NCBI GenBank assembly: GCA_022825065.1
Contig: JAJDYR010000009.1
Coordinates: 1 to 64,000, forward strand
Direction of reading: 5' to 3'
Source: a bacterium
GTDB lineage: Bacteria > UBA8248
Length of the DNA stretch: 64,000 nt
The notes below the pieces were generated by a model. It saw only the letters and a program-made list of their open reading frames with translations, was not told the origin of the DNA and ran no database searches. This document shows, one piece after another, positions 3,391 to 51,304 of the stretch. The translations under genes were made by a program, and so were the position numbers. The stretch's first letter is position 1, and each line of letters starts with the position of its first letter.

Positions 3391-3507
3391 GCAACCCCCC
3401 CTACCCCCCCTTGACAGGGGGGAAAGAAAGAGCAAAACCCCTCCACCGGCGGCGGAAGGGCGAGGCCTTTTTATACCCCCCTGACAAGGGGGGGTAGGGG
3501 GGGTTGC
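3391..3507. repeat. MITE-like palindromic element, copy B
   Basis: Same structure and orientation as copy A: GCAACCCCCCCTAC at the left, mirrored as GTAGGGGGGGTTGC at the right, with an internal AAGAAAGAGCAAAACCCCTCC and GGAAGGGCGAGGCCTTTTTATA. It is followed by TTGCTCCTTTGACA and TTTTCCAACAGC, a tail also seen after copy D. Confidence 0.8.
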
Positions 3508-16643: not shown

Positions 16644-17975
16644 GTGAACATTTGCGTTATCGGCTGTGGATATGTTGGATTGGTCACGGGGGCCATTTTC
16701 GCCGATTTGGGTAACGACGTTATCGGCGTGGATATCGACAGAAGCCGCGTGGATTCCCTGAACGCGGGCGACTGTCCTATCCATGAACCCAGACTGCCTG
16801 AACTGCTGAAACGCAACCTCAAAGAAGGCAGGCTCACTTTCGCAACCTCCATTCCCGAAGCTGTTTCTACAAGTGAGATCATTTTCATATGCGTGGGCAC
16901 GCCACCCGCTGAAGATGGGGGAACCGACCTCTCGCAAGTGGAGACGGCAGCGACAGGCATCGCCCATGCGGTGAATGGCTACAAGATTATTGTCAACAAA
17001 AGCACCGTGCCTGTCGGAACGGGGGATTTCGTCCGGGATGTCATCGAAAAAAATGGTGTTGCCGCGAAAGATTTCGACGTGGTCTGTAATCCGGAATTTC
17101 TGCGCGAGGGGCAAGCGGTGCGGGACACCCTCCAGCCGGATCGCATAGTCATCGGCTCATCATCGGAAACAGCGGCAAAAACCGTTGAGCTTCTATATCA
17201 AGCCCTGGGGGCTCCTTGCATCATTACGGACACACAAAGCGCCGAGTTGATCAAATACGCCTCGAACGCGTTTTTGGCTACGAAAATCACTTTCATCAAC
17301 GCGGTGGCGAACCTTTGCGAGCAAACGCAGGCGGATATTCGGGAGGTCGTCAAAGGGGTTGGCGCAGATTCCCGAATTGGCCCTGCTTTCCTGGGAGCGG
17401 GGCTGGGCTATGGAGGTTCCTGCTTCCCGAAAGATGTGGATGCCCTGTTGCACGCCTCCAGAAGACTTGGCGCTGAAATGCCGATTTTAGAAGCCGTGAG
17501 AGCTGAAAACGACAGCCGGGTTCCCCGGTTTATACAAAGAATCATCGGGAGACTCGGCACCAAGAATCGCTTGCCGCTCGAAGGAACAACCATTGGCGTT
17601 CTGGGACTATCGTTCAAACCGGACACGGATGACATGCGAGAGGCCAAAAGCATTGAGATTTGTCATGCGCTACGTGAGACGGGAGCCAGACTGCGCGCTT
17701 ACGATCCCATCGCCACCACAAACGCCCGGCGAATCATAGGGGATGACGGTATCGAATACTGCCAAAACCCCTACGAGGCAGCTAAAGGCGCAAGCGGGAT
17801 CGTCATTGTAACCGAGTGGCGCGAATTTATTCAGTTGAATCTGAATCGCTTGAAATCAGAGATGGTGGAACCGATTATATTCGACGGGCGAAATGTCTAC
17901 TCTTCTGAACAAGTAACAGATGCTGGCTTTGAATACTTCAGCATCGGGAAAATACCCTCCAAACCTAAACCATGA
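16644..17975 (+). CDS. ugd: UDP-glucose 6-dehydrogenase
   Basis: Oxidises UDP-glucose to UDP-glucuronate with two NAD+. 443 residues with the three expected parts: Rossmann domain ([13 protein letters not shown]), central helix with [10 protein letters not shown] and CNPEFLREG, and a C-terminal UDP-binding domain. The catalytic nucleophile is Cys260 in [17 protein letters not shown] is present. It overlaps the UDP-xylose synthase by 4 bp, which makes UDP-xylose the likely end product of the pair. Confidence 0.95.
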
Positions 17976-49250: not shown

Positions 49251-49637
49251 GGGGGGCGGTTCTGAAGAGAATAGGTTCTCGACAAACAAAGTACATTCCC
49301 CACCAGTTCGCTTGCGGGCTTGCGCCCTTGGCCCTTGGCTCACCGTCGGGCTTTCCCCCTCGGGAAGCCCGCCCCTCAAGGGGATGTTGAAAAAGGCCCT
49401 GCGCACCCCCTCGAATGGAGGCCGCAGGGGCGGCCCCCGCGGCCACCCTTGTCATCTGGAAAACCAACCCCCCCTACCCCCCCTTGTCAGGGGGGTAAAA
49501 AAAGCAACACCCCGACAAGTGGGGGATATGAAAAAAGGCGACGCGCCCTCGCCGGGCCGAAGGGTTTTGCTCTTTCTTGCCCCCCTGACAAGGGGGGGTA
49601 GGGGGGTTGCCTTTATCCTCTGACAAGGCGGGATTAT
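49251..49637. other. Intergenic region with MITE-like copy C
   Basis: No gene. It holds a CGGGCTTTCC...GGGAAGCCCG palindrome at about 49343-49371, a GC-rich stretch repeating GGCCGC motifs, and the copy C element at 49464-49610. Confidence 0.6.
49464..49610. repeat. MITE-like palindromic element, copy C (inverted)
   Basis: Same termini as copies A, B and D, but the internal segment is in the opposite orientation: GGGTTTTGCTCTTTCTTGCC near the right end is the reverse complement of the left-end segment of the other copies. About 147 bp, the longest copy. Confidence 0.8.
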
Positions 49638-50756
49638 TCAACAACCCCCTGCAACCCTATCCGGGAGGCGATAGCTCGTACTCCGTCCACCACCGGGATT
49701 CCGGATAAAAATCCCGCGGGCCTGCAAATCCTGTATATCCCGAAGCGCCGTATCCGTAGAGCACTTCGCCAGCCTGGCGTATTTCGAAGTATGTATATGT
49801 CCCTCAAAATCGTCCTCGAGCATACGATTCAGGACCAGACGCTGGCGTTCGTTGGCGGGCTGCCGGTTCATCTTCCCCCAAAGCTGCGCCTTGAACAGAA
49901 CGCTGCGCAGCGTATCTTCGGCATTGCCGAATGCGCGGCCAAGGCAGCCGAGGAACCATTCGAGCCAGTCCGTTATGTCCGGTGTGCCGCGTTGTTGTTT
50001 TTCCAGTTGAGCGTAATAGTCCTTGCGACCGGATTCCATTTGTGTCGAGAGGCTGTAGACACGATCCGCCATGCCGTCAGAACGCGCCAAAGCCATATCG
50101 GCGATGGCCCTGGCGATGCGGCCGTTGCCGTCTTCGAATGGATGGAGCGTGACGAACCACAGATGGGCAACCCCGGCTCTCAAAACGGGATCGACGCTGC
50201 TTTCAATCTCGAACCATTCCAGAAACGCCCCCATCTCTCGCTCAAGACGATCCGCATCCGGGGCTTCGAAATGAACCTTTTCACGTCCGAGGGGACCTGA
50301 AACAACTTGCATGGGCCCGGCTTCGGGGGTGCGCCAACCTCCGATTGTTATGCGTCGCATCCCGCTACGGCCGGTCGGAAACAACGCAGCGTGCCAATCG
50401 AACAGGCGCTCTCTCGTCAGTGGTCTGGAAAATTGCCGTGTCGCGTCCAGCATCACCTCAACGATGCCCTCGACGTCGCGGCTTGCCGGCGCAAGCCCGG
50501 CGACGTCAATACCCAGGCGTCGGGCGATGGATGAGCGCACCTCCCGGGGATTCAGGTTTTCTCCCTCGATGGCCGATGATTTGACCACATCGTTCGTCAG
50601 CGTGATGAGGCTCGCCTCACGCTTGAGTTCAAAACCCAACCCTTCCATCCTGCCGAGCAGACGACCCTGCCGATGCCGAACCTCGGCAAGCATCGAGGCG
50701 AGTTTTTCGGTGTCCCAGGTGAAGTCCGGCCAGCTATGATGTTCATATATCCACAT
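49638..50756 (-). CDS. Fic family protein (class II, DUF4172 N-terminus) with winged helix
   Basis: 372 residues. An N-terminal DUF4172-like helical domain carries the inhibitory motif Ser60-x3-Glu64-Gly65 (SSAIEGE), which blocks the active site in class II Fic enzymes. The Fic core has HPFEDGNGRIAR with catalytic His205. A C-terminal winged-helix (about 300-365: YARLAKCSTDTALRDIQDLQARGI) probably binds DNA. Fic enzymes AMPylate target proteins. ATG 50756 is chosen because the operator array ends just upstream; an in-frame ATG at 50795 lies inside that array. Confidence 0.9.
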   Translation of the reverse strand: MWIYEHHSWPDFTWDTEKLASMLAEVRHRQGRLLGRMEGLGFELKREASLITLTNDVVKSSAIEGENLNPREVRSSIARRLGIDVAGLAPASRDVEGIVEVMLDATRQFSRPLTRERLFDWHAALFPTGRSGMRRITIGGWRTPEAGPMQVVSGPLGREKVHFEAPDADRLEREMGAFLEWFEIESSVDPVLRAGVAHLWFVTLHPFEDGNGRIARAIADMALARSDGMADRVYSLSTQMESGRKDYYAQLEKQQRGTPDITDWLEWFLGCLGRAFGNAEDTLRSVLFKAQLWGKMNRQPANERQRLVLNRMLEDDFEGHIHTSKYARLAKCSTDTALRDIQDLQARGIFIRNPGGGRSTSYRLPDRVAGGC

Positions 50757-50759
50757 ATC

Positions 50760-50859
50760 ATTCACCGCATTGTTTGCAGTGATTATGCCCTGCATTCACC
50801 GCAAAAGCAAGAATAATCAACGCAAAATATGCGGTGAATAATACTCCTATTCACCGCAT
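50760..50859. promoter_or_regulatory. Operator array upstream of fic: four ATTCACCGCA boxes
   Basis: TTCACCGCA occurs at 50761-50769, 50795-50803 and 50850-50858, and inverted (TGCGGTGAA) at 50830-50838. The last two form a perfect 12-bp inverted repeat, ATGCGGTGAATA and TATTCACCGCAT, separated by ATACTCC (50829-50859). The first box overlaps the presumed ribosome site of fic. Likely bound by a dedicated regulator, possibly the Fic winged helix itself. Confidence 0.7.
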
Positions 50860-51188: not shown

Positions 51189-51304
51189 CCAACCCCCCCT
51201 ACCCCCCCTTGTCAGGGGGGCAAGAAAAAGCAAAACCACCTCAGCCCGGCGGCGGCGCATCGCCTTTTTATACCCCCCTGACAAGGGGGGGTAGGGGGGG
51301 TTGC
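51189..51304. repeat. MITE-like palindromic element, copy D
   Basis: CCAACCCCCCCTAC and GTAGGGGGGGTTGC termini around an internal CAAGAAAAAGCAAAACCAC and CGCCTTTTTATA. Followed by TTGCTCCTTTGACAAGGGC TTTTTCAACAGCCCC, the same tail as after copy B. Confidence 0.8.

What the first reader, a model, noticed from the sequence alone, without database searches (positions are those of the whole stretch)
50760..50859. Four-box operator array controlling a Fic gene
ATTCACCGCA occurs four times within 100 bp upstream of the fic start; two form a perfect 12-bp inverted repeat with a 7-bp spacer and one covers the ribosome site. The Fic protein carries a C-terminal winged helix, so it could repress itself through these sites and link AMPylation state to its own expression. 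I know of no described case with this box.
Basis: partly seen in the sequence, partly recalled or inferred. Interest (0 to 1): 0.6.

Follow-up and report, generated by a model that had tools for sequence, protein, structure and literature searches.

The report
Self-reading operator array of Fic gene
A gene for an AMP-attaching enzyme (Fic) is preceded by six copies of a short DNA word laid over its promoter; across many bacterial phyla the word changes in step with the DNA-reading helix of the same enzyme, so the enzyme almost certainly binds, and probably switches off, its own gene.

Summary
The fic gene (49638-50756, minus strand; DUF4172 + Fic + C-terminal winged helix) has six boxes, not four, at 50760-50858: two "> < >" triads exactly 55 bp apart (box 3 TGCGTTGATT and box 5 TGCAGTGATT are imperfect). 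A sigma-70-like promoter, TTG-N3-N17-TATAAT in the family consensus, lies inside the proximal triad. Of 308 DUF4172-Fic genes from many phyla, 242 carry this array or a palindrome of the same 19-bp geometry (shuffled control 0.13%). The box word differs between loci and covaries with the Fic protein's own wHTH. For bases 3, 5 and 6 the best of about 355 protein columns is residue 335, 338 or 334, all in the recognition helix; bases 7, 8 and 10 point to wing residue 357. Asp335 goes with C at base 3 in 142 of 142 loci, and other residues go with A in 67 of 68. Tree-aware simulations never matched the signal for bases 3, 5 and 6. So Fic reads its own boxes, and promoter overlap argues for autorepression. 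Fic autorepression is known once (Yersinia CccR, different operator); this box, the six-box promoter array and the specificity code were not found in the literature searched. A link to AMPylation state is untested.

The parts
49638..50756 (-). fic gene, 372 aa, DUF4172-Fic-wHTH; start ATG at 50754-50756
   Evidence: the start agrees with the DUF4172 match at residue 2 and with homologues. The ORF tool's earlier ATG at 50795 lies inside the operator
50508..50753 (-). DUF4172 domain (contains the class II inhibitory motif SSAIEG, residues 60-65)
   Evidence: Pfam PF13776, 122 bits, cut-off 25; genome search
50109..50144 (-). Fic catalytic motif HPFEDGNGRIAR (residues 205-216), intact
49662..49850 (-). 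C-terminal winged helix-turn-helix (about residues 303-365)
   Evidence: AlphaFold2 model, pLDDT 91, helices 303-313, 323-330, 334-346 and strand 361-363; PDB match 8CIL, TM about 0.9
49719..49757 (-). recognition helix (residues 334-346, TDTALRDIQDLQA); T334, D335 and L338 track box bases 6, 3 and 5
50849..50858 (-). box 1 TGCGGTGAAT (fic sense, >), distal triad
50830..50839 (+). box 2 TGCGGTGAAT (<), distal triad; with box 1 forms the perfect palindrome; best conserved box in the family
50794..50803 (-). box 4 TGCGGTGAAT (>), proximal triad, within the 17-bp promoter spacer
50760..50769 (-). box 6 TGCGGTGAAT (>), just upstream of the start codon; GGTGA/GGAGA in it can double as a Shine-Dalgarno sequence
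   Evidence: SD reading is inference
50805..50810 (-). -35-like element TTGCTT
   Evidence: TTG conserved at this place in 94 aligned arrays (T .89, T .82, G .70)
50782..50787 (-). -10-like element CATAAT, 17 bp downstream of the -35
   Evidence: TATAAT is the aligned consensus at this place in 94 arrays; the generic promoter scan did not call this weak copy

Best explanation
The boxes are half-sites read by the winged helix of the Fic protein itself. Six half-sites form two identical triads (> < >, box starts at 0, 19 and 34 bp) 55 bp apart. The proximal triad sits on the promoter: box 4 fills the -35/-10 spacer, box 5 overlaps the -10 end, box 6 covers the transcript start and ribosome-site region. 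Fic, probably as a DUF4172-mediated dimer, fills the array and shuts out RNA polymerase, keeping the level of a potentially toxic AMPylase low by negative feedback. Shown computationally: array architecture, conservation, promoter position, and protein-DNA covariation. Inferred: physical binding, the sign of regulation (repression), dimer stoichiometry, and cooperativity between triads.
For: Array found de novo: fit 56/60 here, and 151 of 308 loci exceed the maximum of 308 shuffles. 242 of 308 DUF4172-Fic loci have the array or a 19-bp palindrome, at a 0.13% false-positive rate. Thirty-one Fic genes without DUF4172 score like shuffles apart from one. Top covarying protein column among about 355: base 3 D335, base 5 L338, base 6 T334 (recognition helix), bases 7, 8 and 10 G357 (wing). 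Code: D335 with C3 142/142, A/P/S/E/I/M with A3 67/67, R with T once; in arrays Q334 with A6 47/62, T/N334 with T6 25/28, K/R334 with C6 27/30, I338 with A5 11/12, L338 with G5 93/96. Trait simulation on a tree built without the wHTH: for bases 3, 5 and 6, no column reached the observed MI in any of 200 runs; base 6 has 44 inferred changes. Fifteen informative phylogenetic contrasts agree and none is contrary. TTG-N3-N17-TATAAT aligned inside the array in 94 loci. The AF2 model puts 334-346 in the recognition helix. Where fic is a relic (G001, G005), a distal triad survives but the gene and proximal boxes are lost or incomplete. Precedent: CccR represses its own promoter through its HTH (PMC9755527).
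Against: No binding or expression data. The window's -10/-35 are weak and no transcript start is known. About a fifth of the loci (66 of 308) have no recognised operator by the strict criterion. Triad spacing is 52-57, 68 or about 74 bp in different clades, so a fixed helical phase between triads is not kept; cooperativity by looping is unproven. Base 3 rests on few tree changes (3), and L030, the only in-clade D-to-A change, has TGA in 3 of its 5 legible boxes, not all.
Confidence: 0.86

Rival explanations
1. The boxes are sites for an unrelated, unlinked regulator that controls fic.
For: Boxes over a promoter look the same whoever binds them; another HTH could be responsible (sequence inspection).
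Against: An unlinked regulator does not explain why box bases track the recognition helix and wing of Fic itself, best among about 355 columns, beyond what the tree gives; nor why the array is found at DUF4172-Fic genes across phyla and not elsewhere in this genome.
Confidence: 0.04
2. Fic binds the array but activates its own promoter, or uses the DNA as an allosteric seat that holds the enzyme in a dimeric, deAMPylating or inactive state, with little effect on transcription.
For: CbFic2, the closest solved relative (8CIL), switches from AMPylation to deAMPylation on DNA-induced dimerisation (PMC10628234). The distal triad lies upstream of the -35, where an activator could sit.
Against: Box 4 within the spacer, box 5 on the -10 and box 6 at the start are repressor positions; CccR is a measured repressor. 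One array per genome is too few sites to titrate much protein.
Confidence: 0.08
3. The inverted repeat is an RNA structure or a transcription terminator.
For: The 12-bp inverted repeat followed by ATTTT is called terminator-like on the minus strand.
Against: It lies upstream of the conserved promoter; half the boxes are direct repeats; no Rfam family matches; covariation is with protein residues.
Confidence: 0.01
4. Chance clustering or a mobile repeat that happens to lie next to fic.
For: Several short-repeat elements flank the gene.
Against: Array score far above shuffles and conserved across phyla at the same gene with fixed spacing.
Confidence: 0.005

Closest known systems
CccR of Yersinia pseudotuberculosis (PMC9755527)
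   Same: Class II Fic with C-terminal HTH that represses its own promoter by binding inverted repeats near -35 and -10; a DUF4172 domain is ascribed to it in PMC10628234.
   Different: Footprint AGATAATCAT-N26-ATGATAATCT: two half-sites of another sequence and spacing, not six boxes in two triads. CccR is a secreted T6SS effector; nothing in this window suggests secretion (no secretion genes were looked for beyond the window's ORF list).
CbFic2 (CBU_0822) of Coxiella burnetii, PDB 8CIL (PMC10628234)
   Same: Same domain order and fold over the whole length (328 bits, TM about 0.9); HTH binds DNA; DNA changes oligomeric state and activity.
   Different: Only random DNA was tested there and no operator was identified; the authors call for work on a specific sequence. 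Its helix (SRTTAYRE) resembles the SRATAYRE clade, whose box here is TGAAGCGATT.
SoFic (Shewanella oneidensis; anti-phage family in PADLOC)
   Same: Matches the PADLOC SoFic profile along residues 10-365 (141 bits); class II Fic with C-terminal wHTH.
   Different: Far below NCBIfam's SoFic cut-off (45.8 against 550 bits); fold TM only 0.55-0.58. DNA binding of SoFic had not been shown as of PMC10628234.
Autoregulated toxin-antitoxin operons, e.g. Phd-Doc, AbiE
   Same: A growth-affecting protein module represses its own promoter through multiple operator repeats.
   Different: Here toxin-like enzyme, inhibitor helix and repressor domain are one polypeptide; no antitoxin gene is involved.

Membership tests
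DUF4172-Fic protein family | DUF4172 and Fic domains above Pfam cut-offs | tested here: met
   PF13776 122.1 bits (cut-off 25), PF02661 57.1 (cut-off 24)
DUF4172-Fic protein family | Intact HPFx(D/E)GNGRxxR motif and N-terminal (S/T)xxxE(G/N) inhibitory motif (class II) | tested here: met
   HPFEDGNGRIAR and SSAIEG
DUF4172-Fic protein family | C-terminal winged HTH | tested here: met
   AF2 model and 8CIL match. Pfam DeoR-type/DIP2311 hits lie just under cut-off
CccR-type autorepressing Fic | HTH binds operator in its own promoter | tested here: inconclusive
   Covariation implies it; physical binding not testable here
CccR-type autorepressing Fic | Loss of fic or of the boxes derepresses the promoter | not testable with these tools
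   needs a reporter assay
CccR-type autorepressing Fic | Operator of two 10-bp inverted boxes with 26-bp spacer | tested here: not met
   Six boxes; palindrome half-site starts 19 bp apart. Boxes 2 and 4 are by arithmetic 26 bp apart and diverging, which may or may not be meaningful
SoFic anti-phage system | PADLOC SoFic profile match | tested here: met
   141 bits, residues 10-365; PADLOC's own cut-off was not available
SoFic anti-phage system | NCBIfam SoFic equivalog cut-off | tested here: not met
   45.8 bits against 550
SoFic anti-phage system | Protects cells from phage | not testable with these tools
   needs phage plating

The most novel reading that the evidence does not exclude
The six-box array is a sensor as well as an operator: free monomeric Fic AMPylates targets, operator-bound dimers are held in the deAMPylating or inactive state (as DNA does to CbFic2), so the promoter reports the enzyme's oligomeric or AMPylation state and fic is released when Fic is engaged elsewhere, for example during phage attack. 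The helix-to-base code would then let the native operator of almost any DUF4172-Fic protein be predicted from sequence.
Probability: 0.2. Interest if true: 0.8.

Novelty: new variant of a known kind. Interest (0 to 1): 0.62.

Why it matters
Class II Fic proteins with winged helices are widespread, yet one measured operator (CccR) was found in the papers searched, and the authors of the closest solved relative (CbFic2) state that its specific DNA sequence is unknown. This locus gives a family-wide operator, its placement over the promoter, and a residue-to-base code (334 to base 6, 335 to base 3, 338 to base 5, 357 to bases 7-10). That makes the native target of such Fic proteins predictable and their autoregulation, and any coupling to AMPylation or phage defence, directly testable.

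Tried and rejected
Counting the 10-mer with one mismatch over the whole window: 7 seen, 4.95 expected, uninformative because it ignores clustering. Generic sigma-70 scan: no hit, because the window copy is weak; the aligned consensus of 94 loci settled it. Terminator or RNA reading: rejected. Wider regulon: none in this genome. The few palindromes away from intact fic genes in other genomes were inspected: fic relics (L385, L388), a solitary triad (L374), a triad before a deaminase-like ORF (L376), and weak one-mismatch hits. Helical-phase cooperativity between triads: not supported, since clades differ in spacing. Pair contrasts for every column with optimised residue classes: hypervariable columns give similar raw counts, so that control does not discriminate; the tree simulation was used instead. 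Literature search for the box words returned unrelated hits such as primers.

Full report
Observation. The four exact ATTCACCGCA copies, the 12-bp inverted repeat with 7-bp spacer and the box directly before the start codon are all present as stated. The gene is on the minus strand, 49638-50756; the ATG at 50756 is the start supported by the DUF4172 alignment and homologues. In fic sense the boxes start at -102 (>), -82 (<), -47 (>) and -13 (>) as 9-mers. Fitting a template without any sequence prior revealed two degenerate boxes at -68 (TGCGTTGATT) and -27 (TGCAGTGATT), giving two identical triads, > < >, with box starts 0, 19 and 34 bp, 55 bp apart. The fit scores 56 of 60 column matches; 308 composition-matched shuffles never exceed 43.

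Conservation. Relatives were gathered from GTDB genomes and viral contigs; 308 had usable upstream DNA. Record titles for the first 80 include Desulfobacterota, Pseudomonadota, Planctomycetota, Verrucomicrobiota, Acidobacteriota, Bacteroidota, Chlorobi, Chlamydiota, Spirochaetota, Chloroflexi and others. 151 of 308 have a six-box array above every shuffle; triad spacing is mostly 52-57 bp, with 68 and about 74 bp in particular clades, while spacing within the triad hardly changes (19 and 34 bp in 120 of 133 strong arrays). Counting 19-bp-spaced palindromes as well, 242 of 308 loci are positive, against 0.13% of shuffles. Thirty-one Fic genes lacking DUF4172 score like shuffles (37-44), apart from one partial TGCGGAGATT-type match in L170. 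In the window's genome the palindrome is found only at fic. In the same genus, G002, G003, G004 and G006 keep fic and the array, whereas G001 and G005 keep only fic relics and a distal triad.

Promoter. Aligning 94 strong arrays on box 4 shows TTG at -7 to -5 and TATAAT at +16 to +21, a 17-bp sigma-70 spacing with box 4 filling the spacer, box 5 sharing the last three bases of the -10, and box 6 over the expected transcript start and ribosome-site region. The window reads TTGCTT-N17-CATAAT. This is inference from a conserved pattern, not a mapped start. Base 6 of box 6 is A more often than in the other boxes (53 of 94 against 34-39), which may reflect use of GGAG as a ribosome site; this is a guess.

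Who reads the boxes. The box word varies between loci: TGCGGTGAAT, TGCGGAGAAT, TGCGGCGAAT, TGCGACGAAT, TGCAACGAAT, TGCGGTAAAT, TGAGCCGATT, TGAAGCGATT, TGAGCTATAG and others. I asked which protein columns track each base. Over 215 non-redundant loci and about 355 columns, the leading column is D335 for base 3, L338 for bases 4 and 5, T334 for base 6, G357 for bases 7, 8 and 10, and weakly S324 for base 9; an earlier run on 161 array-bearing loci gave the same leaders for bases 3, 5 and 6. In the AF2 model (pLDDT 91) 334-346 is the recognition helix, 323-330 the preceding helix and 357 lies in the wing. Tables: Asp335 with C in 142 of 142, other residues with A in 67 of 68 (one R with T); in arrays, Gln334 with A in 47 of 62, Thr/Asn334 with T in 25 of 28, Lys/Arg334 with C in 27 of 30; Ile338 with A5 in 11 of 12, Leu338 with G5 in 93 of 96. 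Shared ancestry was controlled by simulating each base along a tree built from residues 1-300 only: for bases 3, 5 and 6, in 200 runs each, no column reached the observed value; base 6 has 44 inferred changes, base 5 has 17, base 3 only 3. For bases 7 and 8, 16 and 6 of 200 runs had some column as high, so the wing assignment is weaker. All 15 informative tree contrasts agree. An Asp-cytosine contact is chemically ordinary (own knowledge). This is close to a proof by sequence that Fic's own winged helix reads these boxes.

Mechanism. Self-binding over the core promoter implies negative autoregulation. The precedent is CccR of Y. pseudotuberculosis, whose HTH footprints two inverted 10-bp boxes 26 bp apart in its promoter, and whose loss raises promoter activity 3.3-fold (PMC9755527). 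The closest solved structure, CbFic2 (8CIL), binds DNA through its HTH, dimerises on it and moves from AMPylation to deAMPylation, but its specific sequence was not known (PMC10628234). Together these suggest, without showing it, that operator-bound Fic is the quiet form. The window protein keeps catalytic and inhibitory motifs and matches PADLOC's SoFic defence profile along its length, though not NCBIfam's SoFic equivalog, so a defence role is possible but unshown.

Limits. No experiment was run. One fifth of the loci have no operator by the strict criterion; some of these have palindromes of slightly different geometry. Why three half-sites make one unit is unexplained. L030, the one in-clade Asp335-to-Ala change, shows TGA in three of five legible boxes: suggestive, not clean. 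The paper library holds open-licence papers only, so absence of the box word there is weak evidence of novelty.

Noticed in passing
window 49478-49597 and 51203-51290; also 411-523 and 3405-3493: Paired inverted copies of CCCCCCTTGTCAGGGGGG (or CCCCCCTTGACAGGGGGG), about 70-100 bp apart, flank fic on both sides and occur twice more in the window; none expected by chance. They look like a miniature palindromic repeat family.
   Followed up: no
L388 (G001), L385 (G005): Same-genus genomes where fic is reduced to a relic but the distal triad survives while the gene and the proximal boxes are lost or incomplete.
   Followed up: partly
L374 1486-1529; L376 285-328: Solitary triads away from an intact fic gene, one before a tRNA-deaminase-like ORF; relics or possible extra targets.
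   Followed up: partly
L061, L064, L066, L067, L197: Flavobacterium-type arrays have triads about 74 bp apart and TGCGGTAAAT or TGCGGTGATW boxes, with a one-residue deletion in the wing.
   Followed up: partly
L149-L162 and other S-x-A-T helix loci: A distant DUF4172-Fic clade has TGAG-type palindromes such as TGAGCTATAG or ATGATCGATA with the same 19-20 bp geometry, without a clear second triad.
   Followed up: partly
L170: A Fic gene outside the DUF4172 set has a partial TGCGGAGATT/TGCGGAGAAT/TGCGGCGAAT triad upstream.
   Followed up: no
L117-L162: Many close relatives of this Fic lie on contigs classed as viral, so the gene with its operator travels on prophages or phage-like elements.
   Followed up: no
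window 16967-16976: One isolated exact copy of the box, without partners.
   Followed up: no
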